In this document: one piece after another, positions 31,695 to 63,906 of the stretch
Layout: each line of letters starts with the position of its first letter
How positions within the stretch are numbered: the first letter of the stretch is position 1
Source: Noviherbaspirillum cavernae
Lineage (GTDB): Bacteria; Pseudomonadota; Gammaproteobacteria; Burkholderiales; Burkholderiaceae_D
DNA: 64,000 nt
Direction: 5' to 3'
Assembly: GCF_003590875.1 (NCBI RefSeq)
Contig: NZ_QYUN01000002.1
Location: forward strand, 1,116,001-1,180,000
Translations under genes and position numbers: made by a program
Notes under the pieces: model-generated
What the model was told of the DNA's origin: nothing
Database searches by the model: none
Seen by the model: the letters and a program-made list of their open reading frames with translations, nothing else

Positions 31695-33010
<1,316 letters not shown>

Positions 33011-34049: not shown

Positions 34050-34802
34050 ATGGCGGCGATTGTGCGTATTGATGACGAGAGCATCGGCATTGAGGATTTC
34101 CTGAGGGCACTGAAGCTCACGGGGCAGTTCGAAGGGCTTATCGAGCAGCTCGTGCGGGATCGGCTCACGGTGCATGCAGCGAAGAAGCACGGTATCGCCG
34201 TGTCGCCGGAAGAGATTCAGGAGCGCGCCGATCAGTTCCGGCGGGTGCAGGGGTTGCACCGCGCGACTGAGATGAACAACTATCTCGATGCGCTCGGCGT
34301 CAGTCTCGACGAGTTCGAGACCTTCATCACCGACGGCTTGTACCAGGAAAAGATGATGGAGCTGGTGTGCAACGACAAGGCGGTGGATGAGTATTTCAAG
34401 TTGCATTCACCCAGGTTCGACAGCATCGAAGTGAGCCACATCGTTGTCGATTCGGATGGCAAGGCGAAGGAATTGATTTCGTTTCTTTCCGAGGACCCGG
34501 ACAGCTTTGCGGAAATGGCCGAGGAGCATTCGCTGGCCGATACGCGAGAGCACGGCGGCATGATCGGCAAGGTGCTGCGCGGTTCGCTCAAGAGCGATGT
34601 CGAGGCGAAAGTGTTCAATGCGGCGGCGGGCGATCTGCTGGGGCCGTTTCCGTCGCCCGACAAGATGTTCTACGAGATATTCATGGTGAATGCGAAATAC
34701 CCGGCGGCGCTGGACGAGGATACGTCGGCCGAGGTGCGGCGCCTGCTGCGCGAGGAATGGCTGCTCGCGCGGGCGCAGGAACATGTGATCGAGGCGCGCT
34801 GA
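34050..34802 (+). CDS. Parvulin-type peptidyl-prolyl isomerase, cytoplasmic form
   Basis: 250 residues with a SurA/PpiC-like architecture: an N-terminal helical chaperone part (FLRALKLTGQFEGLIEQLVRDRLTVHAAKKHGIAVSPEEI) and a rotamase domain from about 130 (VSHIVVDSDGKAKELISFL, FAEMAEEHSLADTREHGGMIGKVLRG, VFNAAAGDLLGPFPS). There is no signal peptide or membrane segment, unlike SurA or PpiD, so it should be cytoplasmic. The start at 34050 follows GAAGGAGTGGACAAG. It lies upstream of, and in line with, the C39-ABC exporter; parvulins beside peptidase-containing exporters are known in cyanobacteria. I infer that it helps present the substrate for export. Confidence 0.85.
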   Translation: MAAIVRIDDESIGIEDFLRALKLTGQFEGLIEQLVRDRLTVHAAKKHGIAVSPEEIQERADQFRRVQGLHRATEMNNYLDALGVSLDEFETFITDGLYQEKMMELVCNDKAVDEYFKLHSPRFDSIEVSHIVVDSDGKAKELISFLSEDPDSFAEMAEEHSLADTREHGGMIGKVLRGSLKSDVEAKVFNAAAGDLLGPFPSPDKMFYEIFMVNAKYPAALDEDTSAEVRRLLREEWLLARAQEHVIEAR

Positions 34803-35097: not shown

Positions 35098-38000
35098 ATG
35101 GACGCACCGGCTTCTTCCGCTCCGCAATCCGTCGCCGAGTTCCTGGCGTCCGTGGAAATATTGTCGCCTTTCACTCGTGAAGAACTGGAACGGCTGGCCG
35201 AACATGCCGAGTCGCGCTTTCATGCCTTCGGCGATACGGTGTGCAATGCCGGCGATCCGGCCGACGGCTTGTTCGTCATCAAGACCGGCTCGGTGCGCAT
35301 GTTCACCGAGGAGAGCGGCAAGGAAGTCAGCATGGGCGTGCGCAAGGCGCGCGAGGTGTTCGCGGACATCGCCATGCTGCGCGAATACCGGCACGAATCC
35401 TCGGTGCGCGCGTCGGCCAAGACCGAATTGCTGTTTATCCCGCGCAAGGTGATCCAGCCGATTGCGGCGCGCAATCCGGCGGCGCAGAACTTCATAGTCA
35501 GTTATGTCGCAATCAGTTCCGCAGGCGGCCTCGTCACCCGCTTGTTCGACCTGCGCGGCAAGGTCAACAAGAGTGAGCTGGAAGAGTTCGTGCGCAGCGT
35601 TGGCGTCAAGCGCGCTCCGGCAGGCAAGGAAATTCTGAAGCAGGATTCGAAGGAGGATCGCCGGCTGTACGTGGTGCGCCATGGCGAAGTGCGCATCGTG
35701 CGGACCGAGGAAGGCAGCGAATACACGCTGGCGACGCTGCGGCAGGGCGAGATTTTCGGGGAAAAGGCCTGCCTGTTGCGGCAGGAACAGATGGCCTCCG
35801 TCGTCGCGACCGCCGACACCACCTTGCTGGTGATTCCCGAAAAGACCGTGCACATGATTCTGGAGCGCAATACGAAGTTGCGCGAAGTGCTGGAAGACCG
35901 CATCCGCTTCATCGAACGGGAATTGCAGCGGCAGAAAAAACTGGCGGAGCGGCGCAAGAGTCCGGTCCGGCTCGACCTGTATTCGAAGCCGGAGTTCGGC
36001 GAAAAGATCATCAAGCGTTTTCCGCTGGTCGAGCAGGCGGAGGAAATGGATTGCGGCGCGGCATGTCTGGCGATGTTGTGCCGGCATTACGGCATTTCGA
36101 TGACGCTGGGCAAGCTCCGTGAACTGGCCAATGTCACGACCCAGGGTGCGACGCTCGACAGTCTGGCGCGCGCCGGCGAATCGCTCGGCTTTACCACGCG
36201 CGGCGTGCAGTGCACGTATGAGGCATTGCTTGGTTTCGAGCTGCCTTTCATCGTGCACTGGGAGGGCTACCACTATGTTGTGGTGTATGGGGTTTCGAAG
36301 CATCAGGTGTGGATGGCCGATCCGGCGGTCGGCTTCAGGAAGATGAGTGTGGAGGATTTCGAGCGCGGCTGGAGCGGCACCTGTCTCGTCTTCACGCCGG
36401 GCGAGAATCTGGTGCAACTCGCGGTGGCGCGCTCGCCGTGGATCCGCTTCGTCGCCTATCTGAAGCCGTACAAGAAGATCCTGGCGCACCTGTTCCTCGC
36501 CACCTTCGTGATCCAGATGCTGGGCGTGGTGCCGCCGCTGATCATCCAGAACATTCTGGATGGCGTGATCGTGCACCAGAACGTCAGCCTGCTGCATCTC
36601 CTGATCGTTGGCCTGATCATCTCCAGTCTGTTTACCCAGATCATGTCGACGATCCGCGCCTACCTTGCGAACTTCATGATGCGCAACATGGACTTCGCGA
36701 TGATGTCGCATTTCTTCAAGCACACGATGTCGCTGCCGTTCTCCTTCTTTGCCAAGCGCAAGACCGGCGACATTCTCGCCCGTTTCGAGGAGAACGCGAC
36801 CATCCGTGCCTTCCTGACGGAATCGACCGTCACCACCATGCTCAATCTGCTGATGGTGTTCATCTACTTCACCATCATGTTCATGTACAACGTCAAGATG
36901 ACGCTGGTGCTGATTGCCTTCGTCATTCCCATCATGGGACTGACGGTGCTGGTCACGCCGAAGCTGAAGAACTATGCGCGCGAAATGTTCACCACCGCCA
37001 CCGATGCCAAGGCCTATTTGATGGAAGCACTGGGCGGCGTCGAGACCATCAAGGGCATGGGCAGCGAGCGGCCGGTGCGATTGAAATGGGAAAAGAAATA
37101 CGCCAAGGCGCTGGACGTGCAATACCGCGCGCAATCCTTCAATATCCTCGCCGGCCTCTGCAGCCAGTTGCTCAATGCGGCCACCACCATCTCCATCCTC
37201 TGGGTCGGCGCCAACCTCGTGCTGTCGCGCGAACTCTCCATCGGACAGTTGATCGCATTCAATGCATTGATGGGCAGCGTGCTTTCGCCGCTGATGGGAC
37301 TGGTTGGATTGTGGAGTCAGCTCAACGATGCCGGCGTCGCGATGGAACGTCTTGGCGATGTGCTCGACATGGAGCCCGAGCAGAAGCCGCAGGACCTGCC
37401 GTCACGCATCGTGCTGCCCGACTTGCAGGGCGATATCCGCCTCGACGGCATTTACTTCCGCTACGGCGGCAACGACACCGCCTACGTGCTCGAAAACATC
37501 AGTCTCGAGATCAAGCCGGGCGAACTGGTCGCCATCGTCGGCCGCAGCGGCTCAGGCAAGACGACGCTGGCGAAGCTGCTGGTGGGTTTCTATCCGCCCA
37601 GTGAAGGGAAGATCATCGTGGACGGCTACGACATGAGCATGATCGACAAGGAGTACTACCGCGCCCAGGTCGGCTACGTCATGCAAAGCAATCTGCTGTT
37701 CTCCGGCACCATCGCGGAGAACATCGCCAGCGGCGACGAGAGCCCCGACCGCCGCCGCATCGAGGAGGTCGCGAAGATGGCGGATGCGCATGCCTTCATC
37801 AGCAAGCTGCCGCTGACCTACGAACAGGTCGTCGGTGAACGCGGCATGGGTTTGTCCGGCGGCCAGATCCAGCGGCTGTGCATCGCGCGCGCGCTGTATC
37901 ACGACCCGCGCCTGCTGGTGTTCGACGAAGCAACCTCCGCACTGGATACCCAATCCGAGAGCAACATCATCGGCAACATGCACGACATTCTGAAGGGCCG

Positions 38001-38163
38001 CACTGCCGTGATCATCGCGCACCGCTTGAGCACGATCATGCGCGCGGACAAGATACTCGTGCTGTACGAAGGCGCGATCGTGGAGCAGGGGCGGCATGAA
38101 GAGCTGGTGGACCGCAGGGGCATGTACTACCAGCTGGTGCAGAAACAATTGAGTGCGGCATGA
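35098..38163 (+). CDS. Double cNMP-binding/C39 peptidase/ABC exporter
   Basis: 1021 residues in one chain. There are two cyclic-nucleotide-binding domains (about 20-135 and 165-280). A C39 double-glycine peptidase domain (about 300-430) has Cys319 in EMDCGAACL, His392 in WEGYHYVVVYG and Asp408 in WMADPAVG, a complete catalytic set. A six-helix export domain (about 450-745) is followed by an ABC ATPase: Walker A GRSGSGKTT (Lys821), signature LSGGQ (919-923) and Walker B LLVFDEATSALD. Such proteins cut leader peptides after Gly-Gly and export the product. The cNMP-C39-ABC order recalls HetC of cyanobacteria and NHLM exporters. The start codon is the first ATG after an in-frame stop and has no strong ribosome-binding site. 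The gene overlaps the sigma-54 activator gene by 4 bases. No HlyD or TolC gene is nearby. Confidence 0.95.
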   Translation: MDAPASSAPQSVAEFLASVEILSPFTREELERLAEHAESRFHAFGDTVCNAGDPADGLFVIKTGSVRMFTEESGKEVSMGVRKAREVFADIAMLREYRHESSVRASAKTELLFIPRKVIQPIAARNPAAQNFIVSYVAISSAGGLVTRLFDLRGKVNKSELEEFVRSVGVKRAPAGKEILKQDSKEDRRLYVVRHGEVRIVRTEEGSEYTLATLRQGEIFGEKACLLRQEQMASVVATADTTLLVIPEKTVHMILERNTKLREVLEDRIRFIERELQRQKKLAERRKSPVRLDLYSKPEFGEKIIKRFPLVEQAEEMDCGAACLAMLCRHYGISMTLGKLRELANVTTQGATLDSLARAGESLGFTTRGVQCTYEALLGFELPFIVHWEGYHYVVVYGVSKHQVWMADPAVGFRKMSVEDFERGWSGTCLVFTPGENLVQLAVARSPWIRFVAYLKPYKKILAHLFLATFVIQMLGVVPPLIIQNILDGVIVHQNVSLLHLLIVGLIISSLFTQIMSTIRAYLANFMMRNMDFAMMSHFFKHTMSLPFSFFAKRKTGDILARFEENATIRAFLTESTVTTMLNLLMVFIYFTIMFMYNVKMTLVLIAFVIPIMGLTVLVTPKLKNYAREMFTTATDAKAYLMEALGGVETIKGMGSERPVRLKWEKKYAKALDVQYRAQSFNILAGLCSQLLNAATTISILWVGANLVLSRELSIGQLIAFNALMGSVLSPLMGLVGLWSQLNDAGVAMERLGDVLDMEPEQKPQDLPSRIVLPDLQGDIRLDGIYFRYGGNDTAYVLENISLEIKPGELVAIVGRSGSGKTTLAKLLVGFYPPSEGKIIVDGYDMSMIDKEYYRAQVGYVMQSNLLFSGTIAENIASGDESPDRRRIEEVAKMADAHAFISKLPLTYEQVVGERGMGLSGGQIQRLCIARALYHDPRLLVFDEATSALDTQSESNIIGNMHDILKGRTAVIIAHRLSTIMRADKILVLYEGAIVEQGRHEELVDRRGMYYQLVQKQLSAA

Positions 38164-46881: not shown

Positions 46882-47652
46882 TTACAGCGTGGGATTCAGG
46901 ACCGTCTGCTCGATGGAGGACAGGTCTTCCGCGCGCACCAAAACCACCGAGATGTTGTCGCGCCCGCCTTGTTGCAGCGCCATGTCGATCAGTGCCTGCG
47001 CCGCGTACCGGCAGTCACCCGCAGGCAGCACGCTGCACATGTCCTGCTCGCTGACTTCGTTGCTCAGACCGTCGCTGCACAATAGAAAGATATCGCCGTC
47101 CTCGACCACGATCGTGTCTGCGTCGATATCCAGCGTCTCGGCTGCGCCGACCGCCCGCGTGATCAGATTGCGGGCAGGGTAAAAGGCGGCGTCTTCGGGG
47201 CTGATGCTGCCGCTGGAAACGAGTTCCTCGATCTGGCTGTGGTCGCGCGTGAGCCGCCTTAGGCGGGCGTCGCGGTACAGGTAGATGCGGCTGTCGCCCG
47301 CCCACAGGTAGCCGCACTGGTCATCCCACGCGACGAGGACCACCACCGTGCTGCCGATGATGTGCGCGCCGCGCGCCGCTGCTTCTTCGCGCAACTGCTG
47401 ATTCACCGCGAGCAGCCGGTCGCGCGCATCGGCCATGAAGGTGGCGAGGCTGTCGGGCGCGGGTATGGCGTCGAGCGCGTCCACCACCATGCGGCTGGCG
47501 ACGTCGCCCAGCGCGTGACCACCCATGCCGTCGGCCACGGCCCACAGCCCGCGCTCGGGCCGGTCGAGGCAGGCGTCCTCATTGATCCGCCGCACCAGTC
47601 CGACGTCGGTGCAGGCGGCCGATGACCATTGAATTTGCGTGGCGTCCGTCAC
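46882..47652 (-). CDS. PP2C-type Ser/Thr phosphatase
   Basis: A 256-residue soluble phosphatase with metal-binding motifs in order: RRINEDACLD, WAVADGMGGHALGDVAS, LWAGDSRIYLYRD, FLLCSDGLSNEV and GGRDNISVVLV. It would reverse phosphorylation by the kinases in this window. The order PP2C then kinase on the same strand resembles the PppA/PpkA pairs, but no type VI secretion gene is present. There is no sigma-54 motif directly upstream. Confidence 0.92.
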   Translation of the reverse strand: MTDATQIQWSSAACTDVGLVRRINEDACLDRPERGLWAVADGMGGHALGDVASRMVVDALDAIPAPDSLATFMADARDRLLAVNQQLREEAAARGAHIIGSTVVVLVAWDDQCGYLWAGDSRIYLYRDARLRRLTRDHSQIEELVSSGSISPEDAAFYPARNLITRAVGAAETLDIDADTIVVEDGDIFLLCSDGLSNEVSEQDMCSVLPAGDCRYAAQALIDMALQQGGRDNISVVLVRAEDLSSIEQTVLNPTL

Positions 47653-47852: not shown

Positions 47853-48146
47853 TTAATGCTTGAAATTCGCCGCCTGCTGATTCGCGGCCAGGCTGATGTT
47901 CGAGTTGGCCGCCGTATTGTTCACGTTGATCGACTGAAACTGGTTGTTCATCTGGTCGGCATAGAAGTTGTTGATCTCATAGACATTCACGATCTGGCCG
48001 AAGCTGGCGTTGGCCGGCACCGACGGCCTGTAGGGAGCGAAGGCGCCGAACACCCACGGCGCACCGCCCGCGCCACGGATCGCGGACATTGCCTTGCGGT
48101 CGAGCGTGCGATCCGAGTGCAGATCATTGATGACAATTGCGGCCAT
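47853..48146 (-). CDS. Double-glycine leader peptide, P1
   Basis: 97 residues. The leader MAAIVINDLHSDRTLDRKAM is followed by SAIRGAGG. Hydrophobic residues fall at the classic leader positions (Leu15, Met20, Ile23), and cleavage is expected after GA (25-26) or GG (27-28). The predicted core is Asn/Gln-rich (NNFYADQMNNQFQSINVNNT, SLAANQQAANF) like P3, P6 and P7. The start at 48146 is chosen for the ribosome-binding site CGGAGACACC and for alignment with the other leaders. A sigma-54-type promoter lies 155 bases upstream. The product is probably exported by a C39 transporter. Confidence 0.8.
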   Translation of the reverse strand: MAAIVINDLHSDRTLDRKAMSAIRGAGGAPWVFGAFAPYRPSVPANASFGQIVNVYEINNFYADQMNNQFQSINVNNTAANSNISLAANQQAANFKH

Positions 48147-48299
48147 GGTGTGTCTCCGAATAATGGGTGGTGGTGAATGCCTGAAAGCCTCTGAAAAAAT
48201 CAAGAATCGCGATCGATCTGCTGTCGTTCCTTGCTGCGACGCGCTGTTAAACAAGCTGTCGGTTCACCGCATACACATGACACGAAACGCTTCACATGC

Positions 48300-48316
48300 T
48301 GCAAGTGCCATGCCAG
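48300..48316 (-). promoter_or_regulatory. Sigma-54-type promoter upstream of P1
   Basis: Minus strand CTGGCATGGCACTTGCA. It matches the YTGGCACG-N4-TTGCW consensus except for one T in the -24 element, with exact GG-N10-GC spacing. It overlaps the 3' end of the P2 gene (its stop codon begins at 48319), so P1 can be transcribed separately. The predicted leader is about 145 bases. Confidence 0.65.
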
Positions 48317-48493
48317 TCATCGCACCGTCGGCATCGACTGTTCAATCGTCACTGCCGGAAGTATCGGATCGCCGGGAGCCATCGGTTGCGGGAAGGCCTG
48401 CACGAATCTGTACTGCGCGAAGCTGCCGATGGCCATGCCGCCACCCACCGTGCACATCGCCTCGCGGTCGAGTTCCTTGGATGACAAGTTCAT
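48317..48493 (-). CDS. Double-glycine leader peptide, P2 (short leader)
   Basis: 58 residues from the ATG at 48493: a shortened leader MNLSSKELDREAMCTVGGG that aligns with the second half of the other leaders (ELDRxAMxxVxGG), then a 39-residue core MAIGSFAQYRFVQAFPQPMA onward. The core start MAIGS recalls TAMGS in P5 and TSYGS in P3. A longer frame to 48553 exists but includes the stem-loop at 48517, so the short form is preferred. The ribosome-binding site is weak (GCAGGCAACC). Confidence 0.6.
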   Translation of the reverse strand: MNLSSKELDREAMCTVGGGMAIGSFAQYRFVQAFPQPMAPGDPILPAVTIEQSMPTVR

Positions 48494-48516
48494 GCGGGTT
48501 GCCTGCGTCACATCAA

Positions 48517-48542
48517 GGAGCGCCGCTTCATTGCGGCGCTCC
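48517..48542 (-). terminator. Stem-loop after P3
   Basis: GGAGCGCCGC and GCGGCGCTCC form a perfect 10-bp stem with loop TTCATT, 27 bases past the P3 stop on the minus strand. There is no clear T-run, so it may act as an attenuator or RNA-stabilising structure between P3 and P2. Confidence 0.6.
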
Positions 48543-48568
48543 CTGGTGCGCATCAGAAGAACCCGCTA

Positions 48569-48868
48569 TCAGACCGGAACCGGAATGCCGTAGCCACCGA
48601 ATCCGCCGACCGAATTGAACCCTTGCTGGTTGTTCCATGCCGAGATGCCGCCGCCGAACACAGCCGAGCCGTTGCCGGTCGGGTTGCTTTGCACCTGGTT
48701 GTTCTGCTGCGAGATCTTGACGTCGGTGGTCGATGAATAGGATGAATAGGAGGGCAGAAGATGGCTCTTGGTCCAGCTGCCGTAGCTCGTGCCGCCGCGC
48801 ACCGCGCTCATGGTCTTGCCGTCGAGTTCCGCAGCGATGATGAGGTCTTTGATGATCAGTGTTTGCAT
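48569..48868 (-). CDS. Double-glycine leader peptide, P3
   Basis: 99 residues: leader MQTLIIKDLIIAAELDGKTM then SAVRGG, with Gly-Gly at 25-26, Leu15, Met20 and Val23 at the -12, -7 and -4 positions. The 73-residue core begins TSYGSW. It contains the block NNQVQSNPTGNGSAVFGGGI followed by SAWNNQQGFNSVGGFGGYG, which is nearly the same in P6 and P7. There are no Cys, so lanthionine or disulfide maturation is unlikely. The start at 48868 follows AAGGAGAACTACC. A sigma-54-type promoter lies 75 bases upstream. Confidence 0.85.
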   Translation of the reverse strand: MQTLIIKDLIIAAELDGKTMSAVRGGTSYGSWTKSHLLPSYSSYSSTTDVKISQQNNQVQSNPTGNGSAVFGGGISAWNNQQGFNSVGGFGGYGIPVPV

Positions 48869-48942
48869 GGTAGTTCTCCTTGAATGGAAGTCGTGAGGTT
48901 TGGGTTTGAGTCGAACATTCTGTCGCGCTCGACAGACATATT

Positions 48943-48957
48943 GCAGGGAGCATGCCA
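48943..48957 (-). promoter_or_regulatory. Sigma-54-type promoter upstream of P3
   Basis: Minus strand TGGCATGCTCCCTGC, with GG-N10-GC spacing. The 90 bases from the ribosome-binding site to this motif are nearly identical to the region before P7 (52049-52140), so the promoter region was duplicated with the gene. Confidence 0.7.
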
Positions 48958-48995
48958 GCCCGCTCCGGTCGCTGAGGATGATGCGCAAGTCATTG

Positions 48996-49013
48996 AAAAA
49001 TATGGATATTTTT
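48996..49013. promoter_or_regulatory. Candidate upstream activator site (AT palindrome)
   Basis: AAAAATAT-GG-ATATTTTT, an 8-bp perfect inverted repeat about 40 bases beyond the -24 element of P3. A related but imperfect sequence (AAAAACAAGGAGTATTTT) lies at the same distance before P7 (about 52175). This is a candidate binding site for the Fis-type helix-turn-helix of the sigma-54 activator. The rest of 48869-49269 has no recognised gene. Confidence 0.4.
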
Positions 49014-49269
49014 CGTTATGGCAGATTCTTGTGCAGGTGTGCCGAGATTGCTGCCGGGAAGGGTGGCGGGTCCGGCCAAACAGTTCACAGGCAGCCTGTT
49101 CGGAAAACTGAAACACCTGTTGTCCTTCGGTGCGGGACTGTTGCGTTCAGACGGAGGCCCCGCATCCTGAATACGGGATACACCGTATTGCGAAGTGGAT
49201 ATTGTGACTGCTAGTATGTTACGTAAAAATCATTGCAGGTCCCGTACCGGGCCTGCCGGGGACGCAGAC

Positions 49270-50442
49270 ATGTTCGGTACCAAAGAAGTTTTCCTGATAG
49301 CAGCCTTGCTTTGCTTCATCACGTTTCTCGTACTGTTTTCAATGAATGAAAGCCGTGTGAACGGGGTCAGGCCGCTGTTGCTGTCCAGCGTGCTGGGGAT
49401 GGCGGGCAACGTTCTGTATGCCTTCGGCAAGGAGCTGCCGCCCCTCATTGCCTACGAAGGGGCCAATGCGGTCTATGCCGCCGCCTCCGCCGCCACATTG
49501 GTTGGATACCGGCAGCTCTTCAACACCAGGCCATTCATATCGCTTCTGGCAGCCGCAGTCGCGCTGCTGACGTGCCTGGTCGCCTATTTTCACTACTTCG
49601 TGGATTCGTTCATCGGCCGCACCTGCGTAGCGTCGCTATTCCAGGTCGGCATCGCGGCTGGAATCGGATGCACGGTGCTCCAGGCACGCGATGAAGGCGA
49701 GCAGTCCCGATACGCAAGAATGTTCATTCTGGCGATGTGCGGCCTTGTCGCCGGCGGCCATCTATTGCGGGTGGTAAGGCAATGCATCGTATCCGACGCG
49801 CCGAAGTCCTTGCTGGAGCCTTCCGGATGGAACGTGTTTTTGCTGTCCGGCGGGGCCTTCGTATTGCCGGTGCTGATCCTGGGCGGCCTGCTCCTTGCGC
49901 ACCGCAGGTTGATCTCGGATGTGCAGCATGCGGCGAATCATGATTTCCTGACCGGAGCATGGTCGCGGCGGGCATTCTTCGATGCCGGCGAACGCGAAGC
50001 CGTCCGTGCGAAACGGCATGGCAAACGATTGGCATTGCTCCTCATCGACCTCGATAACCTGAAGCCGGTCAATGATACTTACGGCCACGCGGCCGGCGAT
50101 GAAGCACTCATTGCCTTTGTCCGCACGGCGCAAACCACCCTGCGCTCCATTGATTGCCTGGCGCGCCTGGGCGGGGATGAATTTGCCATCTTGATGCCGG
50201 AAACAGACCTGTCCGGCGCAGTCAGTGCTGCTGAACGGCTCAAGAGCCGGTGGAAATCCGCAGGTGGCGCCAGTCAGGCGGCAAGCGTCACGTTCAGCAT
50301 CGGCGTTGCAGTCTTGCGGGACGATGACAGCTTCAATACACTGATCAGCCGCGCCGACAAGGCCTTGTATGAAGCAAAGGGCGAAGGCCGCGACCGGGTC
50401 ATGGCACAACGCGATGTTGATCTTGCCCCCGCGATGATCTGA
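49270..50442 (+). CDS. Membrane diguanylate cyclase (GGDEF)
   Basis: 390 residues. The N-terminal 215 residues contain six to seven hydrophobic helices (FLIAALLCFITFLVLF first), a membrane sensor without a named motif. The GGDEF domain from about 225 is intact: HDFLTGAWSRRAFFD, DLDNLKPVNDTYGHAAGDEAL and RLGGDEFAILMPE. An inhibitory-site RSID lies five residues before GGDEF. It should make c-di-GMP. The ATG at 49270 is chosen over the upstream GTG at 49195 because membrane segment 1 begins right after it. It lies on the opposite strand, between peptide genes. Confidence 0.88.
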   Translation: MFGTKEVFLIAALLCFITFLVLFSMNESRVNGVRPLLLSSVLGMAGNVLYAFGKELPPLIAYEGANAVYAAASAATLVGYRQLFNTRPFISLLAAAVALLTCLVAYFHYFVDSFIGRTCVASLFQVGIAAGIGCTVLQARDEGEQSRYARMFILAMCGLVAGGHLLRVVRQCIVSDAPKSLLEPSGWNVFLLSGGAFVLPVLILGGLLLAHRRLISDVQHAANHDFLTGAWSRRAFFDAGEREAVRAKRHGKRLALLLIDLDNLKPVNDTYGHAAGDEALIAFVRTAQTTLRSIDCLARLGGDEFAILMPETDLSGAVSAAERLKSRWKSAGGASQAASVTFSIGVAVLRDDDSFNTLISRADKALYEAKGEGRDRVMAQRDVDLAPAMI

Positions 50443-50630
50443 ACGCGATGCTGGCGCTTGTGCAGCTGCACGGGGGCATGAAATGCATTCTACGCACGCA
50501 CGGACGACAGACAGGGCGCACCATGTGCGCCCGTGCCTTCAAACCGGCTATCCGACTGATTGACCGGCTTTCTCTCACGTGACTTCGTGAGTCCTGGCCG
50601 GGAGAAAAACGCCCGACTCAAACGGCTTTT

Positions 50631-50849
50631 CTATTTGCGGGACTTGCTTCCCGCGGCTTGCTTTCCAGCATCCGTCTGCGAAGGCGAAACAAATCCCTTC
50701 GGGAAATTGACGATGCGGTTGTCACGCGCGACCATGCGTCCCGCGAAGGGACGATGCATGCCGGATCGTGCGCCTCCGGTGACCGCAAGCATGGCATCGC
50801 GGTCGAGATCGATGCTGTCCGGCAAATCCTTGATGACGATGTGAGACAT
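50631..50849 (-). CDS. Double-glycine leader peptide, P4 (basic core)
   Basis: 72 residues: leader MSHIVIKDLPDSIDLDRDAM then LAVTGG with Gly-Gly at 25-26. The 46-residue core ARSGMHRPFAGRMVARDNRI and onward is rich in Arg/Lys and lacks the Asn/Gln block, so it is the most different family member. The start at 50849 follows CTGAGGAGCAGCAT. An imperfect motif TGGAATGCTCATGC (GG-N9-GC, one base short) lies about 60-75 bases upstream. Confidence 0.78.
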   Translation of the reverse strand: MSHIVIKDLPDSIDLDRDAMLAVTGGARSGMHRPFAGRMVARDNRIVNFPKGFVSPSQTDAGKQAAGSKSRK

Positions 50850-50994
50850 ATGCTGCTCCTCAGGATGAAAATCGAAGTGGTGTGATCCGATGGTTAGCAT
50901 GAGCATTCCAGGAGTCAGAGTGCCCGCGCGTCCGGAGATTCAATAAAAATGCCTCCCCTTGAAAGCAGAAACATCGAAGCGGAAACAAGGGCAA

Positions 50995-51052
50995 GACGCA
51001 TCGGGATGCGCCGGACGGTTGTCTCAATCCATCCGGCGCATCCCGATGCGTC
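50995..51052 (-). terminator. Long perfect stem-loop after P5
   Basis: A 21-bp perfect inverted repeat (50995-51015 and 51032-51052, beginning GACGCATCGGGATGCGCC) with a 16-base loop, starting 25 bases past the P5 stop on the minus strand. It probably ends or stabilises the P7-P6-P5 transcript. Confidence 0.75.
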
Positions 51053-51076
51053 CTGCGGCGGCCGCGCATTGCTGAA

Positions 51077-51352
51077 TCAGGCGAAATGCGTGGGCAACGA
51101 CGACAGTTGCAGGTAGTTCATTCCCACTTGTGTCGGGCTGACCTTCAGGCCGGGCAGGTAGGCACCGGCACCGATGGCGCTGCCATTGAGGACGTTGGTG
51201 TTCTGAACCATATAGTTTTGCTGGTTCACGCTGACCGGCACGTTGATGTTGATGCTCGGGCTGCCCATGGCGGTGCCCCCGTGGACGACGGACATGGCCT
51301 TGCGGTCAAGTTCCGTGCTGTGGGACAAGTTGCGAATCATGATGGTGGACAT
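51077..51352 (-). CDS. Double-glycine leader peptide, P5
   Basis: 91 residues: leader MSTIMIRNLSHSTELDRKAM then SVVHGG with Gly-Gly at 25-26. The 65-residue core starts TAMGSPSININVPVSVNQQN and continues with VQNTNVLNGSAIGAGAYLPG, a diverged version of the NNQxQSNxTGNxSAV block of P3/P6/P7. The start at 51352 follows CAAAGGAAACAGCC. It is the last of three genes transcribed together from the promoter at 52121. A 7-bp stem-loop (51392-51413) separates it from P6. Confidence 0.8.
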   Translation of the reverse strand: MSTIMIRNLSHSTELDRKAMSVVHGGTAMGSPSININVPVSVNQQNYMVQNTNVLNGSAIGAGAYLPGLKVSPTQVGMNYLQLSSLPTHFA

Positions 51353-51391
51353 GGCTGTTTCCTTTGATGAAGTTGAGTGCTTGAGGGTTGT

Positions 51392-51413
51392 GGGGGAGTC
51401 TTGCCGCTCCCCC
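51392..51413 (-). terminator. Stem-loop between P6 and P5
   Basis: GGGGGAG and CTCCCCC pair across TCTTGCCG. There is no T-run. It may lower P5 expression relative to P6 and P7 or protect the mRNA. Confidence 0.5.
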
Positions 51414-51426
51414 GATTCGTGAGCGA

Positions 51427-51708
51427 TTACTTGACGCCGTAGCCGAAGCCGCCGATCGAGTTGCTGCCCTGCTGGTTGTTCCATGCTTCGATGTTGCCGC
51501 AGAACACAGCCGAGTTGTTGCCGGTCGGGTTGCTTTGCGCCTGGTTGTTGACCTGGTCGATCGAAATGTTCGTGGTCGATGTGGATCCATACGAATCCGG
51601 TAAGTAAGGCATCTTCGGCATTTTGTAGGTGCCGCCGCGCACGGCGCTCATGCCTTCGGCGTCGAGTTCTTCGGCAATGGCGAGGTCTTTGATGGACAGG
51701 GTTTTCAT
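51427..51708 (-). CDS. Double-glycine leader peptide, P6
   Basis: 93 residues: leader MKTLSIKDLAIAEELDAEGM then SAVRGG with Gly-Gly at 25-26. The 67-residue core TYKMPKMPYLPDSYGSTSTT leads into NNQAQSNPTGNNSAVFCGNI and EAWNNQQGSNSIGGFGYGVK, closely similar to P3 and P7, with a single Cys. The start at 51708 follows TAGGAGAACCGAC. It is 55 bases after P7 and in the same transcript. Confidence 0.85.
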   Translation of the reverse strand: MKTLSIKDLAIAEELDAEGMSAVRGGTYKMPKMPYLPDSYGSTSTTNISIDQVNNQAQSNPTGNNSAVFCGNIEAWNNQQGSNSIGGFGYGVK

Positions 51709-51763
51709 GTCGGTTCTCCTAAGGAATTGGATAAGTCGATATTCAGGGCAAGGCGGTCGACGA

Positions 51764-52048
51764 TCAGCCGATCGAGTTGAAGCCTTGCTGGTTGTTGAAG
51801 GCGAAAATGCCGCCACCGAATACTGCAGAGCCGTTGCCGGTGGCGTTGCTCTGGAACTGGTTGTTGGCTTGATCGATCGAAACGTTCGTCGTGGTCGTGG
51901 ACGACGGGTAGGAGGGGGTGGACGGTTGCTTGTAAGAGCCGGGGTGAGGCATCTTCACGCCGCCGTAGCAGCCGCCGCGCACGGCGCTCATGCCTTTGAC
52001 GTCGAGTTCTTCAGTGATGGACAGGTCTTTGATGGTCAGTGCTTTCAT
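51764..52048 (-). CDS. Double-glycine leader peptide, P7
   Basis: 94 residues: leader MKALTIKDLSITEELDVKGM then SAVRGG with Gly-Gly at 25-26. The 68-residue core starts CYGGVKMPHPGSYKQPSTPS and ends with NNQFQSNATGNGSAVFGGGI and FAFNNQQGFNSIG. It stops where P3 and P6 continue with GFGYG-type tails. The start at 52048 follows CAGGAGAACTACC. It is the first gene of the P7-P6-P5 unit, with a sigma-54-type promoter 73 bases upstream. Confidence 0.85.
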   Translation of the reverse strand: MKALTIKDLSITEELDVKGMSAVRGGCYGGVKMPHPGSYKQPSTPSYPSSTTTTNVSIDQANNQFQSNATGNGSAVFGGGIFAFNNQQGFNSIG

Positions 52049-52120
52049 GGTAGTTCTCCTGGATGGAAGTATGAGGTTTGGGTTTGAGTCGAACATTTTG
52101 TCGCGCTCGGCAGACATATC

Positions 52121-52135
52121 GCATGGAGTGTGCCA
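52121..52135 (-). promoter_or_regulatory. Sigma-54-type promoter upstream of P7-P6-P5
   Basis: Minus strand TGGCACACTCCATGC: a perfect TGGCAC -24 element, GG-N10-GC spacing and an ATGC -12 element. It lies at the same distance from the start codon as the P3 motif. The rest of 52049-52452 (404 bases) shows the duplicated leader (similar to 48869-48960) and otherwise no gene I can support. Confidence 0.7.
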
Positions 52136-52452
52136 GCATGGTCCATGCATGCCGAAATGCGACGCAAGTCATTGAAAAACAAGGAGTATTTTCTCGTTCG
52201 CCGGAGTGGTGGCGAATGTGGCGGGGTGTCTGAAAAAGCCGGGTGACGGCTTTCACCAAACATCTGTACGGGGCGCTGTTGGGAGCTGCGCGACACTTCG
52301 CGCTTCGTTCAGTGGAGAGGGGCGGCGACACGTGCCGGATGATCAACGCCAGCCATGCAGTGGTTTGCGACGTGCCTGCGCGTCCTGTCCTTGCGTCAGT
52401 TGCCCTTGCGTCAGCTGCCGCTGCATGAGGAGTGATGGCCGATCATGCCAAG

Positions 52453-55409: not shown

Positions 55410-57560
55410 ATGGCCAATCTTGCGCATGCAATTCATTCCTTGCAAAGCGGTGCCTTGTCGCACCATGAGTTTCTGGCGCAGGTGGATCGTGCGCTGGTGA
55501 CGGATGAGGCCAATACAGTGCGCTTGCTGGAGATTCTCGGCGATGAGCATACGCGGATTCAGCTGCCGCCTGATGTGTATCTGGAATTGCGCCGCCGTGT
55601 CGAGCATGTGCTGGCTTCGCGGCAAGGATTCGGCGGCGATGAGACGCGCGTGCAGACCAATCCGCGCGACCGCTGGCCTTCGCACACGATGCCGCCGCAG
55701 GTGATCATGCCGAACGACACGGCAGGTTCCGACCCGGAGCGGATGAAGGGCGTGGGTGATACCTTGAACGGGCGCTTCGTGCTGGAGGAGTGCATCGGCT
55801 TCGGCGGCATGGGCACGGTGTACAAGGCGCTCGACCTGCGCAAGCTGGAGGCGTCCGACCGCAAGCCCTACATCGCGATCAAGGTCTTGAACGTGCAGTT
55901 TCGCGGCCACCCGAAGTCGCTCATCGCCTTGCAGCGCGAGGCAAGGAAGGCGCAGTCGCTGGCGCATCCGAACATCGTGGCGGTATACGACTTCGACCGC
56001 GACGGTTCGATGGTCTATCTGACGATGGAGTATCTGTCGGGCAAACCCTTGAGCCAGACGCTGCGCACGCGCGGGTTCACGGGCATGCCGCATGCCGACG
56101 CGATGCGTATTGTCGGCGGTATCGGCAAGGCGCTGGCCTATGCGCATGAACGTGGTTTCGTCCATTGCGATCTCAAGCCGGCCAATGTGTTCGTGACCGA
56201 TGCGGGCGAGATCAAGGTGATCGATTTCGGCATCGCGCGCGTGTTCCGCAAGCCGGAAGAGGATGCCGAAGCGACGGTGTTCGATCCGGGCAGCCTCGGC
56301 GCGCTGACGCCGGCGTACGCGAGCCCGGAAATGATGGAGCATCTGGAGCCGGACCCGCGCGATGATGTCTACGCGCTGGCCTGCATTACGTACGAGCTGC
56401 TGACGGGCAAGCATCCCTTCGACCGCTTATCCGCCTTGCAGGCGCGCGGCGCGCAGATGAAGGTGCAGCGGCCGAAGATGCTGGGGCACAAGCAATGGCG
56501 CGCGCTGAAGCACGCGCTGTCGTTCGACCGCGAATCGCGCACGCCCGACGTGGCGCATTTTCTGCAGGAGATGAGCGGAGACAGCCGGACCAGGAGGTTT
56601 GCCGCGCTGGCCGCATCGCTGGTGGTTCTGACGGGGGGCGTGGCCGCAGGACTTTATTACTATCAGCAGTCCCGCAGCGGCGATGCCGAGCGCGAGGAGG
56701 TGGCGAGCGCCGAGCCGCCGGCGAAAGCCGCGCCTGCCACTCCGGAAGCCGCGCCTGCCACTCCGGAAGCTGCGCCGCCGGCGACTCCGCAAAGCGTACC
56801 GCAAACCCCGCCGCAAACCGCCGCGCCGGCACCACCACAGGCCGCGCCAACGTCGCCGCCTGCGCTGTCGCTGGCTGCGGTCGCACCGATTCTTGCCCGC
56901 GTGCCGTGTTCGGCTCTTCTGCCCACGGTGCGCGAGCGTGAATTGCAGGTGAAGGGATATCTGCCCGCGAGTTTCGGCGTGCCGCGGCTGAAGGAAATGC
57001 TGGGCAAGGTGCCCGGCATGAACAGCCTGAACCTTGAGGTGCAGGAGGTCGGTGACGACAAATGCAACGTGATCCAGGCATTCGCGCCGTACTGGTTGAA
57101 GAACCGGCAGGCCGCAACCGCCACGTCCGCAACGTCCGCCGCATCCGCCGCGTCGGTCCGTGCGCGCTCGCCGGACGCGGTCTTGACCGAAGGCGAGCCG
57201 CTGATCGTTGATATCACGACCCCCGCATACGCGTCGCACGTCTATGTCGATTACTACGTCCTCGATGGCAGCGTCGCGCACCTGGTGCCGAATCCGCGCG
57301 CGCGCGCCAACCAGGCGCCCGCCAATTACAAGGCCGCCATCGGCAGCCTCGGCAACTGGGTCATATCAAAACCGTTCGGAACGGAATTGATCGTCTTGCT
57401 CGCCACGCCGGCACCTTTGTTCGACAGCATTCGCCCGGAGTCGGAGTCGGGAGCGGCATATCTGAAGGCGGTGGAAAAACAGCTGCAACAAATGGCCGCA
57501 AAGCACGGGGCGGAAAAGATTGCCGTGGATTTCCTGCAGATCACGACGAAGGCGAAATAA
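55410..57560 (+). CDS. Membrane Ser/Thr protein kinase with DUF4384 domain
   Basis: 716 residues. An N-terminal helical part (1-115) precedes a kinase domain (about 122-385) with Gly loop IGFGGMG, Lys158 in AIKVL, catalytic HCDLKPAN (252-259; HRD is HCD, as in many bacterial kinases) and DFGIARV (272-278). A membrane helix is at about 398-417 (FAALAASLVVLTGGVAAGLYY), followed by a Pro/Ala linker with APATPE repeats. The C-terminal periplasmic DUF4384-like domain (about 590-700) includes EGEPLIVDITTPAYASHVYVDYY and VAHLVPNP. It probably signals envelope state. Single gene; the ATG at 55410 lies after a long AT-richer leader. Confidence 0.9.
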   Translation: MANLAHAIHSLQSGALSHHEFLAQVDRALVTDEANTVRLLEILGDEHTRIQLPPDVYLELRRRVEHVLASRQGFGGDETRVQTNPRDRWPSHTMPPQVIMPNDTAGSDPERMKGVGDTLNGRFVLEECIGFGGMGTVYKALDLRKLEASDRKPYIAIKVLNVQFRGHPKSLIALQREARKAQSLAHPNIVAVYDFDRDGSMVYLTMEYLSGKPLSQTLRTRGFTGMPHADAMRIVGGIGKALAYAHERGFVHCDLKPANVFVTDAGEIKVIDFGIARVFRKPEEDAEATVFDPGSLGALTPAYASPEMMEHLEPDPRDDVYALACITYELLTGKHPFDRLSALQARGAQMKVQRPKMLGHKQWRALKHALSFDRESRTPDVAHFLQEMSGDSRTRRFAALAASLVVLTGGVAAGLYYYQQSRSGDAEREEVASAEPPAKAAPATPEAAPATPEAAPPATPQSVPQTPPQTAAPAPPQAAPTSPPALSLAAVAPILARVPCSALLPTVRERELQVKGYLPASFGVPRLKEMLGKVPGMNSLNLEVQEVGDDKCNVIQAFAPYWLKNRQAATATSATSAASAASVRARSPDAVLTEGEPLIVDITTPAYASHVYVDYYVLDGSVAHLVPNPRARANQAPANYKAAIGSLGNWVISKPFGTELIVLLATPAPLFDSIRPESESGAAYLKAVEKQLQQMAAKHGAEKIAVDFLQITTKAK

Positions 57561-61959: not shown

Positions 61960-63906
61960 ATGGACAACACGACAACATTTGCGGAATCGGTGGGCGGGGT
62001 GACGGCGTATCTGGAAGTCACCGGGGACGGCTCGGCCAGACCGGTGGTATTCCCGATCCACGACGAGGTGGTCATCGGCCGCGATCCGCAGGACTCGCTG
62101 GCATCCGACAAGTTTCTCTGCATACCGGAACACACCGTGAGCCGCCGCCATGCGCGCATCCGGCGGCGCGGCGACGGCTATTTCGTGGAGGACCTGCATT
62201 CGTTCAACGGCACCTTCGTGCTCGGCGAAAGGCTCACCCCAGGCAGCTGGCATCCGCTGCATGATGGCGACGAGTTCAGCGTCGCCTCTGCCCAGATCGT
62301 GTTCCATTCGCTGGTGGTGCCGGCGCAGGACAGCATGCCGACCATCATTGCCAAGGCGGTCGATGCGACCGAGTTCACGCGCATGATCGGCACGCCGCCG
62401 GTGGCGACGCACGGCGACGTGCAGCGCACCGTGCAGAAGCTGCATGCGATGGCGCAGGTAAGCATCGCGCTCGGCGCGGTGAAGGATCGCGACACGCTGA
62501 TCGAAAAGATCATGAACTTCATCTTCGACCTGTTTCCGCTGGCCGAACGCGCTTTCATTCTCCTGCGCAAGAACGAGGGCGAAGCGCCGGTGCCGGTGGC
62601 CGCGCGCAGGCGCGACGGCACGATAGAGGATCCGGATCACGTCAAGATATCGCGCACCATCGTGGGCGAAGTGCTCGACCGGAAGCAGTCGATCCTGTCG
62701 GTCGATACGCTGTCCGACCGCCACTTTTCGTCGCAGGTCTCGATCATTTCGCAAGCCATACGCAGCGCCATGTGCGTCCCGCTCGTCATCGGCGGCGAGT
62801 GTCTCGGCCTGATCCAGGTGGACACCTCGTCGGACCCGCATGCGTTCAAGGAGCAGGACCTGGAAATGCTGACCGGCGTGTGCGCGGAAGCCGCCGTCGC
62901 GCTGAAGAACTTCCAGCTGTACTCGGAAATCGAGAACCTGCTGGACGGCTTCGTGCGGGCGTCGGTGCAGGCGATCGAGGAACGCGACCCGGTGACCGCC
63001 GGCCATTCATTCCGCGTGGCCGGCTATGCGGAGCATCTGGCGATGGCGGTGGATCGCGACAGCGGCGCGGCGCTGCGGCATGTCAATTTCACGCACGACC
63101 AGCTGCGCGAGATTCGCTATGCCGCGCTGCTGCATGACTTCGGCAAGGTCGGCGTGCGCGAACACGTGCTGCGCAAGGAGAAGAAGCTGCATCACGCCGA
63201 CATGCGCATGCTGGAGCAGCGCTTCCTGTATGCGCGTGCGTGCCTGGAGCGGGAGGCCTACCGGCAACTGGCGGAGCTGCATGGCGAGCATGAATTGAGC
63301 ATGGCGGAATTTCGCGACGTCAAGCGGCAGGTGGAACAAGACTTGCACGAGGAATTCAGCCGGCTGGACGGCTTCCTTGCCTCCATCCGGCACGCGAACG
63401 AACCGGCGATTTCGTTCACGGAGTGCCCGCCCGATTTGCAGAAGGTGCTGGATTACGCGTATCCCGCGCTGGACGATCCGGCGGCGCCGCTGCTCAACGA
63501 GTTCGAGTTTTCCGCACTGTGCATTGCCAAGGGCTGCCTGACGGCGGATGAGCGCAGACAGATCGAGGCGCATGTGGCGGATTCGTATTCCTTCCTGATC
63601 CTGATCCCGTGGACGCGCGACCTCGGCGGCGTGCCCGCGATTGCGCACGGCCATCACGAGAAGCTGGACGGCTCCGGTTACCCGATGGGCCTGCACGGCA
63701 ATCAGATCAGCATGCAGACCCGCATCCTGACGATCTGCGATATCTACGACGCGCTCACCGCCGGCGATCGTCCCTACAAGAAAGCGCTGCCCTTGGAGCG
63801 GGCGCTGGATCTGATCGCGATGGAATGCCGGGCGGGACATCTCGATCAGCGGTTGTTCGATGTGTTTGTCGCGTCCAAGAGCTGGCTGGTGGCCGAGCAT
63901 CCCTGA
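61960..63906 (+). CDS. FHA-GAF-HD-GYP protein
   Basis: 648 residues. The N-terminal FHA domain (about 20-115) has EVVIGRDP, HTVSRRHARIRRR and LHSFNGTFV, the phosphothreonine-binding pattern G-R ... S-R-x-H ... N-G. A GAF domain (about 165-315) covers LIEKIMNFIFDLFPLAERAF to CVPLVIGGECLGLIQVD. The HD-GYP domain (about 325-640) has LLHDFGKVGVREHVL (HD) and GHHEKLDGSGYPMGL (GYP), with an extra insert of about 120 residues between them. It should bind phosphorylated partners of the nearby kinases and hydrolyse c-di-GMP. The ATG at 61960 is preferred over the TTG at 61885. Confidence 0.92.
   Translation: MDNTTTFAESVGGVTAYLEVTGDGSARPVVFPIHDEVVIGRDPQDSLASDKFLCIPEHTVSRRHARIRRRGDGYFVEDLHSFNGTFVLGERLTPGSWHPLHDGDEFSVASAQIVFHSLVVPAQDSMPTIIAKAVDATEFTRMIGTPPVATHGDVQRTVQKLHAMAQVSIALGAVKDRDTLIEKIMNFIFDLFPLAERAFILLRKNEGEAPVPVAARRRDGTIEDPDHVKISRTIVGEVLDRKQSILSVDTLSDRHFSSQVSIISQAIRSAMCVPLVIGGECLGLIQVDTSSDPHAFKEQDLEMLTGVCAEAAVALKNFQLYSEIENLLDGFVRASVQAIEERDPVTAGHSFRVAGYAEHLAMAVDRDSGAALRHVNFTHDQLREIRYAALLHDFGKVGVREHVLRKEKKLHHADMRMLEQRFLYARACLEREAYRQLAELHGEHELSMAEFRDVKRQVEQDLHEEFSRLDGFLASIRHANEPAISFTECPPDLQKVLDYAYPALDDPAAPLLNEFEFSALCIAKGCLTADERRQIEAHVADSYSFLILIPWTRDLGGVPAIAHGHHEKLDGSGYPMGLHGNQISMQTRILTICDIYDALTAGDRPYKKALPLERALDLIAMECRAGHLDQRLFDVFVASKSWLVAEHP

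What the first reader, a model, noticed from the sequence alone, without database searches (positions are those of the whole stretch)
47853..52048. A family of seven paralogous double-glycine leader peptides
Seven short minus-strand genes share a leader of the form M-x3-I-[KRN]-[DN]-L-x5-LDxxxM-x-x-[VI]-x-GG. Five have Gly-Gly at exactly residues 25-26, P1 has GA/GG at 25-28 and P2 has a shortened leader. Hydrophobic residues lie at -4, -7 and -12, as in class II bacteriocin/microcin leaders cut by C39 peptidases. Cores differ in length (39-73) and sequence. I recognise no named bacteriocin among them.
Basis: partly seen in the sequence, partly recalled or inferred. Interest (0 to 1): 0.9.

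Follow-up and report, generated by a model that had tools for sequence, protein, structure and literature searches.

The report
Secreted mini-protein family with own exporter
A cluster of small proteins with export signals in a betaproteobacterium belongs to a large unnamed family that travels with its own export machine and gene switch in many relatives, and looks more like building material for the cell's surroundings than like an antibiotic, which remains to be shown.

Summary
A profile of the precursors finds only these seven places in the genome. The family is large (930 database relatives). Of 294 genomes of its family, 29 carry the window's cNMP-C39-ABC exporter, and all 29 are among the 34 with these peptides. 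Linked in relatives: TolC, HlyD, FHA protein, parvulin, σ54 activator, PP2C. Sub-arrays start with σ54 -24/-12 promoters preceded by dyads TGTYG-N9-CRACA (166 of 181 promoters; 6% of random stretches). The bacteriocin reading is weaker: five peptides belong to core classes sharing an Asn/Gln-rich C-terminal domain, P1-type cores are conserved between distant genera, selection is purifying, and I saw no immunity gene, though none was systematically sought. Most likely: a σ54-regulated type I secretion system exporting adhesive or matrix-forming proteins, working like EbfG/PteB of Synechococcus. Cleavage, secretion and matrix role are inferred, not shown.

The parts
51764..52048 (-). P7, class A peptide precursor, 94 aa, GG at 25-26, Asn/Gln-rich core; first gene of a sub-array
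51427..51708 (-). P6, class A precursor, 93 aa
51077..51352 (-). P5, class C precursor, 91 aa
50631..50849 (-). P4, class E precursor, 72 aa, cationic core (net +8)
48569..48868 (-). P3, class A precursor, 99 aa; first gene of a sub-array
48317..48493 (-). P2, probable decayed precursor (58 aa, or 78 aa from 48553), no visible ribosome site, truncated leader
47853..48146 (-). P1, class B (WVFG/WVYG type) precursor, 97 aa, next to PP2C as in relatives
52120..52135 (-). sigma-54 -24/-12 site TGGCACACTCCATGCG, 87 bp before P7
52277..52295 (-). upstream dyad TGTCG-N9-CAACA (0 mismatches) before P7; a weaker one (2 mismatches) at 52244-52262
52165..52175 (-). IHF-like TCAANNNNTTR between dyads and sigma-54 site of P7
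48942..48957 (-). sigma-54 -24/-12 site TGGCATGCTCCCTGCA, 89 bp before P3
49064..49115 (-). two weak upstream dyads (2 mismatches each) before P3; IHF-like site at 48986-48996
48300..48315 (-). sigma-54-like site TGGCATGGCACTTGCA, 169 bp before P1 (atypical distance; same letters as before several Paraburkholderia P1-type genes)
34041..34802 (+). parvulin/SurA-like PPIase, 253 aa, in front of the exporter
   Evidence: linked in 80 of 80 named loci
35098..38163 (+). cNMP-cNMP-C39-ABC peptidase exporter, 1021 aa
38160..39458 (+). sigma-54 activator (AAA+; DNA-binding end presumed), overlaps the exporter gene by 4 bases
   Evidence: linked in 80 of 80 named loci
46882..47652 (-). PP2C-type phosphatase, directly downstream of P1
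43559..46216 (-). Ser/Thr kinase with MORN repeats
55410..57560 (+). Ser/Thr kinase with DUF4384 flanking the array on the other side (start codon not settled)
61960..63906 (+). FHA-GAF-HD protein; TolC-type OMF, double-FHA protein and HlyD follow across and past the window's end (window-equivalent 63990-65453, 65477-68044, 68010-69383)

Best explanation
The array encodes a family of secreted mini-proteins that are substrates of a dedicated type I secretion system. Transcription: the sigma-54 activator encoded with the exporter binds two upstream dyads (TGTYG-N9-CRACA) and, with IHF-like bending, fires sigma-54 promoters in front of each sub-array. Export: the 26-residue leader docks as a helix on the C39 domain of the cNMP-C39-ABC exporter, is cut after Gly-Gly (Gly-Ala in P1), and the mostly unfolded core leaves through HlyD and the TolC-type channel, helped by the parvulin. 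Gating: FHA proteins, PP2C and Ser/Thr kinases suggest control by threonine phosphorylation, and the two cNMP domains control by a nucleotide. Function: Asn/Gln/Ser/Thr-rich, little-charged cores that share one C-terminal domain accumulate outside as adhesive or matrix, perhaps amyloid-like, material, with the P1 type as an invariant partner and the cationic P4 type as a possible anchor. Shown here: gene family, linkage, promoter architecture, homology and selection of cores. Inferred: activator binding, cleavage, secretion, phospho-control, matrix function.
For: Linkage: exporter in 29 of 294 family genomes, all 29 among the 34 peptide-bearing ones (Fisher p 3e-35, not corrected for kinship); 74 of 80 named exporter loci hold at least one leader ORF in flanks of up to 10 kb. 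In those 80 loci, chosen by the exporter: parvulin 80, sigma-54 activator 80, PP2C 70, HlyD 68, double-FHA 68, OMF 67. In the window's genome OMF, FHA and HlyD lie at the window's right end and beyond. Promoters: 133 of 185 peptides in named loci have a -24/-12 site 55-175 bp upstream, against 1.9% of 20,000 random positions; of the 52 without, 48 follow another peptide gene within 500 bp. Dyads with at most 1 mismatch: 166 of 181 promoters, 243 of 4000 random stretches, spacer 9 (next best spacer 56 of 181). Contigs not used to find the motif: sigma-54 site on 8 of 9, dyad at 6 of 9 sites. Cores: N+Q 20%, S+T 16%, KRDE 8% (317 cores, repeats not removed); classes A, B, C align to D with hhalign probability 97, 95, 95%; beta-type periodicity above shuffles by about 5, 8, 3 and 2 sd for A-D. 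Selection: median dN/dS 0.157 (P1-type core), 0.507 (D-type core). Precedent: EbfG/PteB (abstract and passages of PMC4997328, PMC9981879).
Against: No secretion or matrix data. AlphaFold models are poor (mean pLDDT 57 for P7, 47 for P1; only a leader helix), so no fold supports fibres. Class D cores show helical periodicity (about 5 sd above shuffles) more clearly than beta periodicity (2 sd). D-type cores evolve faster than their leaders (0.507 against 0.380), as a weapon might. Of the 5 peptide genomes without this exporter, three have another exporter-sized C39 frame, but G062 and G071 have only C39 frames of 271-385 aa. 6 of 80 named loci show no peptide in the flank. Kinases are near the exporter in only 3 (KIN) and 2 (KIN2) of 80 named loci. 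In the window the dyads of P3 carry 2 mismatches each, P1 has none better than 2, and P1's sigma-54 site is 169 bp away. On the held-out contigs 3 of 9 sites lack a dyad and L157 has no site.
Confidence: 0.6

Rival explanations
1. The peptides are class II bacteriocins/microcins: secreted, pore-forming or receptor-targeted antibacterials used against relatives.
For: Double-glycine leader and C39 exporter are the hallmark of class II microcins; class E (P4) has a cationic core (net +4 to +9); D-type cores vary fairly fast (dN/dS 0.51).
Against: No immunity-type gene seen in the array (by eye, not a systematic screen); up to 18 members per genome; P1-type cores alike from Oxalobacteraceae to Paraburkholderia and Aromatoleum; mean core charge -0.9 for 317 longer cores; no hit to a bacteriocin family.
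Confidence: 0.22
2. The peptides are cell-cell signals that control development or biofilm through the Ser/Thr kinases.
For: Kinases, PP2C and FHA proteins at the locus; double-glycine peptides serve as pheromones in other bacteria (recalled); HetC, of similar architecture, might export a signalling peptide (abstract and passages of PMC10986499).
Against: Several copies of 65-73-residue cores with a shared little-charged domain are unlike short pheromones; no receptor was seen, but none was searched for.
Confidence: 0.1
3. The genes are RiPP precursors whose cores are chemically modified before export.
For: Weak TIGR04149 leader similarity of P7; a caspase plus FGE-sulfatase protein lies at 58731-60659.
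Against: No typical RiPP-modifying enzyme among the linked genes that I identified (not every gene of the locus was scanned); Cys only 0.5% of core residues.
Confidence: 0.05

Closest known systems
EbfG1-4 / PteB of Synechococcus elongatus PCC 7942 (PMC4997328, PMC9981879; abstract and passages seen)
   Same: Tandem small proteins of about 9-10 kDa with a double-glycine (or Gly-Ala) motif, secreted with the help of a C39 peptidase transporter; EbfG1-3 form amyloid and EbfG4 is a surface/matrix protein.
   Different: No sequence relation tested; the present family has a shared core domain, sigma-54 promoters with a linked activator, parvulin, FHA/PP2C genes and double cNMP domains on the exporter.
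HetC of Nostoc PCC 7120 (PMC10986499; abstract and passages seen)
   Same: C39-ABC exporter with an N-terminal cyclic-nucleotide-binding domain; that domain binds ppGpp in vitro and is needed in vivo.
   Different: Substrate unknown, role in heterocyst differentiation; here two cNMP domains and linked candidate substrates.
Cyanobacterial bacteriocin gene clusters of groups I, II and VI (PMC3140520; passages seen)
   Same: Long C39-ABC transporter with HlyD and a SurA-type rotamase next to double-glycine precursors.
   Different: Other phylum; the word sigma does not occur in the main text; cores are called bacteriocins by prediction.
Class II microcins (PMC9746304, PMC10233263; search listing and start of abstract only)
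   Same: Double-glycine leader, C39 exporter, HlyD and TolC (general features recalled).
   Different: No immunity gene seen, repeated related cores, Asn/Gln-rich little-charged core.
Fap functional amyloid system of Pseudomonas (PMC5557850; listing and start of abstract only)
   Same: Extracellular matrix fibres; a C39-type protein takes part (recalled).
   Different: Dedicated outer-membrane amyloid channel; no double-glycine leader (recalled).

Membership tests
Double-glycine (C39-processed) secreted peptides | Leader ending in GG/GA with hydrophobic residues at -4, -7, -12 | tested here: met
   six of seven window peptides; 119 of 120 listed relatives fit the pattern, which itself asks for these residues; P2 does not fit fully
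Double-glycine (C39-processed) secreted peptides | Linked C39-ABC exporter | tested here: met
Double-glycine (C39-processed) secreted peptides | Cleavage after GG and export | not testable with these tools
   needs secretome mass spectrometry
Class II microcin / class II bacteriocin | Adjacent immunity gene | tested here: inconclusive
   none seen among ORFs of the array; small unrelated ORFs not screened systematically
Class II microcin / class II bacteriocin | Match to a described bacteriocin family | tested here: not met
   Pfam none, NCBIfam none above cut-off
Class II microcin / class II bacteriocin | Antibacterial activity | not testable with these tools
   needs assay
EbfG-type matrix proteins | Multi-copy GG-motif genes with C39 exporter | tested here: met
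EbfG-type matrix proteins | Sequence homology to EbfG | not tested
   EbfG sequences were not fetched; this is an analogy only
EbfG-type matrix proteins | Role in biofilm, amyloid formation | not testable with these tools
   composition and periodicity only
Curli / known amyloid repeats | Match to a Pfam family such as the curlin repeat | tested here: not met
   no Pfam family at E up to 1 for the seven (HMMER filters drop weak matches)
sigma-54-dependent promoter | -24/-12 GG-N10-GC element at a fixed place | tested here: met
   held-out
sigma-54-dependent promoter | Upstream enhancer dyads for an activator | tested here: met
   166 of 181 promoters, spacer-specific; in the window clear only for P7
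RiPP TIGR04149 (rSAM-modified) | Score above cut-off | tested here: not met
   14.5 of 25 bits

The most novel reading that the evidence does not exclude
A previously unnamed betaproteobacterial matrix system: a sigma-54-controlled, phosphothreonine- and nucleotide-gated type I secretion machine that extrudes a defined mixture of Asn/Gln-rich mini-proteins (an invariant P1-type nucleator or anchor, variable fibre subunits, a cationic linker) which assemble outside the cell, a functional counterpart of curli built on double-glycine export.
Probability: 0.33. Interest if true: 0.85.

Novelty: new variant of a known kind. Interest (0 to 1): 0.68.

Why it matters
Wherever a source names one of the 120 listed relatives of either search it says hypothetical or uncharacterized protein, and no Pfam domain is shown. 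Yet the family comes with a complete, conserved export and control kit in Paraburkholderia, Caballeronia, Noviherbaspirillum, Aromatoleum and Cupriavidus. If the proteins build a matrix, this is a widespread unnoticed way for betaproteobacteria to make surface material and a second clear case, far from cyanobacteria, where double-glycine export serves structure rather than killing. The promoter code makes the regulon predictable and testable in harmless laboratory strains.

Tried and rejected
Rejected: (1) ORF 54915-56414 minus as an array gene: it is the antisense of the kinase 55410-57560 plus. (2) The GGDEF gene 49195-50442 between P3 and P4 as a system part: only partial, low-identity hits at other places in relatives. 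(3) An RNA hairpin in the 5' leader (GAGC...GCTC just after the presumed start of transcription): I aligned 54 of the 151 unique leaders, leaving out P1-type ones; they show no covariation above shuffles (cells paired 75.6% against 76.2% shuffled, slid controls 21-39%), and folds of five leaders have z from +0.4 to -1.8; it may be a DNA site. (4) Structure-based assignment: models too poor to search; profile hits in the PDB are marginal (best E 0.0014 to WD-40 repeat fragments, and 0.16) and not believed. (5) A first test of P1-type next to PP2C (46 of 93) used stop-to-stop ends of PP2C and was wrong; redone. (6) PMC5979394 (P. phymatum sigma-54 transcriptome) was searched for exporter terms: HlyD, cyclic nucleotide and peptidase do not occur in the main text; supplements not read. 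(7) PADLOC hits are generic kinase, ABC and cNMP matches.

The dyad was found and counted on the same set; the spacer control and the held-out contigs are the checks. Core classes rest on crude text rules; at least one class C member printed there looks D-like.

Full report
WHAT WAS CHECKED. The seven reading frames are present at the stated places. Six (P1, P3-P7) have a full leader, and I see a purine-rich ribosome site 6-7 bases before each start (by eye). P2 has a cut-down leader, no such site before either possible start, and nothing alike beyond leader-level similarity in the 34 stretches and 80 named loci fetched by then; I treat it as a decayed copy. A profile of the seven, searched against the whole 4.66 Mb genome at E up to 10, gives these seven places and no other. 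Pfam has no family for any of them at E up to 1; NCBIfam gives one sub-threshold leader hit.

THE FAMILY. A search of 5.8 billion proteins with the alignment gives 930 relatives at E up to 1e-3, the best 120 listed; the P1-type alignment gives 563, the best 120 listed. Names shown by sources say hypothetical, conserved hypothetical or uncharacterized protein; organisms shown are Noviherbaspirillum, Herminiimonas, Oxalobacteraceae, Paraburkholderia, Burkholderia, Caballeronia, Cupriavidus and one metagenome bin called Bacillota. The leader consensus in the listed relatives is M-K-x-L-x-I-K-D-L-x5-L-D-x-K-A-M-x-A-V-R-G-G. The window's genus is that of Noviherbaspirillum autotrophicum TSA66: the 'same genus' genome G184 has a contig of the same length, 5,132,512, as that strain's record.

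EXPORTER AND KIT. The window holds a parvulin (34041-34802), a 1021-residue cNMP-cNMP-C39-ABC exporter (35098-38163) and a sigma-54 activator (38160-39458) on one strand. The exporter is the only exporter-sized PF03412 match of the genome. Among 294 genomes of the family, 34 carry the peptides (10 of 44 genera, up to 18 copies) and 29 carry this exporter; the 29 are a subset of the 34. In 369 genomes of the class, 3 carry the exporter, the window's own included; the two others also carry peptides, one of them only weakly (best E 2e-4). Of the five peptide genomes without it, G021, G222 and G230 have other C39 frames of 719-1151 aa, while G062 and G071 have only frames of 271-385 aa. A scan of 84,980 species genomes with residues 1-440 of the exporter confirmed 230 relatives, of which the best 80 were kept; the other 150 were not seen. 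In those 80 loci, which hold the exporter by construction: parvulin 80, activator 80, PP2C 70, HlyD 68, double-FHA protein 68, TolC-type protein 67, KIN 3, KIN2 2, within flanks of up to 10 kb, some cut short by contig ends; 74 hold at least one leader ORF. In P. xenovorans LB400 (L093) the order is peptide, OMF, FHA, HlyD, parvulin, exporter, activator, then convergent PP2C and a P1-type peptide. In the window's genome OMF, FHA and HlyD lie on the other side of the array, at and past the window's right end, as in L058, L059 and L062. So the secretion system is complete although the window alone seems to lack HlyD.

PROMOTERS. A GG-N10-GC element of sigma-54 type sits 87 bp before P7, 89 bp before P3 and 169 bp before P1. 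In relatives it lies mostly 76-92 bp before the first peptide of a sub-array, and within 55-175 bp of 133 of 185 peptides in the named loci, against 1.9% of 20,000 random positions; 48 of the 52 without one follow another peptide gene within 500 bp on the same strand. Upstream of it a dyad TGTYG-N9-CRACA is found with at most one mismatch in 46 of 57 Oxalobacteraceae-type and 120 of 124 other promoters, against 243 of 4000 random stretches, most often about 110-130 and 150-170 bases before the sigma-54 site. Spacer 9 stands out (166 of 181; next best 56). An IHF-like TCAANNNNTTR lies 20-70 bases upstream in 34 of 58 and 31 of 124, and in 1 of 58 and 1 of 124 in the next 50-base bin. On nine contigs with peptides that were not used for this, eight have a sigma-54 site (nine sites among 25 leader ORFs), six of the nine sites have a dyad and five the IHF-like element. 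That the activator of the exporter operon binds the dyad is inference from linkage. No sigma-54 element was found in the 500 bp before the parvulin frame in 27 of 29 loci examined, the window among them.

CORES. After removal of leaders, 400 unique cores from fetched loci and listed relatives fall by crude text rules into classes A (96), B (84), C (38), D (101) and E (24), with 57 left over. Profiles of A, B and C each align with D at 97, 95 and 95% probability over about 50 C-terminal columns; direct A-B, A-C and B-C comparisons are weaker (64, 68, 54%), and E is unrelated (0.1%). P3, P6, P7 are class A, P1 class B, P5 class C, P4 class E. The 317 cores from precursors of at least 77 residues (repeats included) have 20% Asn+Gln, 16% Ser+Thr, 8% charged residues and 0.5% Cys. 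Beta-type periodicity exceeds shuffles clearly for A and B (about 5 and 8 sd) and weakly for C and D (3 and 2 sd); helical periodicity is below shuffles for A and C, near them for B, but about 5 sd above for D. Selection is purifying: median dN/dS 0.157 for P1-type cores (44 sequences), 0.507 for D-type cores (45), 0.041 for the exporter C39 domain (44), on Paraburkholderia/Burkholderia loci. The nearest upstream co-directional peptide of PP2C is of P1 type in 87 of 92 loci; two of the five exceptions (L034 and L069, one contig) are P1-like but missed by the pattern. AlphaFold gives a helical leader and an unstructured core with low confidence, which fits an unfolded export substrate but proves nothing.

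HOW IT LIKELY WORKS. Leader and C39 exporter say that the cores are cut and exported; sigma-54 promoters and an activator gene in the exporter operon suggest a common switch. In L093 and similar loci the first peptide with its sigma-54 promoter is directly upstream of OMF-FHA-HlyD-parvulin-exporter-activator on the same strand, so read-through could give positive feedback (inference). FHA proteins and PP2C in most loci suggest phosphothreonine control, as known for type VI secretion (recalled); kinases are close by only in part of the loci. What the cores do is the open point. Repetition, conservation between distant genera, low charge, Asn/Gln richness, purifying selection and the lack of a visible immunity gene favour extracellular structural material; EbfG1-4 of S. 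elongatus, secreted with the help of the C39 protein PteB, are the experimental precedent (abstract and passages of PMC4997328 and PMC9981879). I give this reading about 0.6 overall: export and sigma-54 control above 0.9, matrix or adhesive function about 0.55.

LITERATURE. Searches for this system: 'double-glycine leader' with Noviherbaspirillum (0 papers); four C39/double-glycine/cNMP/microcin terms, three needed (14 listed, none on this system by title or start of abstract); Paraburkholderia/sigma-54/regulon/type I secretion/bacteriocin, four needed; FHA/HlyD/C39/peptidyl-prolyl/Burkholderia, four needed; double-glycine/RiPP/Burkholderiales/C39; threonine phosphorylation/FHA/type I secretion/PP2C; double-glycine/sigma54/Burkholderia/secretion, three needed (195 papers, 15 listed, none on this system by title). 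Within that open-access library I found no description; subscription papers were not searchable. Dirix et al. 2004, a genome-wide screen for double-glycine peptides in Gram-negatives, was seen only as a citation.

Noticed in passing
window 58731-60659 minus: A caspase-domain (Peptidase_C14) protein with an FGE-sulfatase domain lies between the second kinase and the FHA-GAF-HD gene; whether it is conserved with the system was not tested.
   Followed up: partly
window 60899-61324 and 61370-61789 plus; L093:1969-2736: Two tandem DUF4399 proteins; a DUF4399 gene also sits beside the peptide gene in P. xenovorans LB400, so this unknown domain may be a further member of the kit.
   Followed up: partly
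window 61960-63906 plus: FHA-GAF-HD protein, a link of phosphothreonine binding to an HD (perhaps c-di-GMP) domain at the edge of the system.
   Followed up: partly
5' leaders of sub-array first genes, e.g. window 52085-52119, L093:2945-2979: Conserved GAGC...GCTC motif just after the presumed transcription start in Oxalobacteraceae, Burkholderiaceae and Aromatoleum loci; no covariation, function unknown.
   Followed up: yes
L053:3918-4067 plus, L054:3488-3640 plus: An extra leader-like ORF with a stretched leader and its own sigma-54-like site lies in front of the parvulin gene in two genomes.
   Followed up: no
L042:7404, L046:5848, L048:4986, L057:6561, L127:19772: A short precursor class with core RMKLPFQRA...YVDGVLVNSV, nearly identical, seen among fetched loci only in genomes of one genus (g30, that of Paucimonas lemoignei) (L127 and L046 are one contig).
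   Followed up: no
window 30622-31447 minus and 31737-33010 plus: Two transposase-like gene sets (recognised by eye, no family search) upstream of the parvulin-exporter operon.
   Followed up: no
window 48869-49008 and 52049-52188: The 140 bases before P3 and P7 are alike (116 of 143 aligned columns; 68 of 77 for the last 75), a duplicated promoter and leader.
   Followed up: yes
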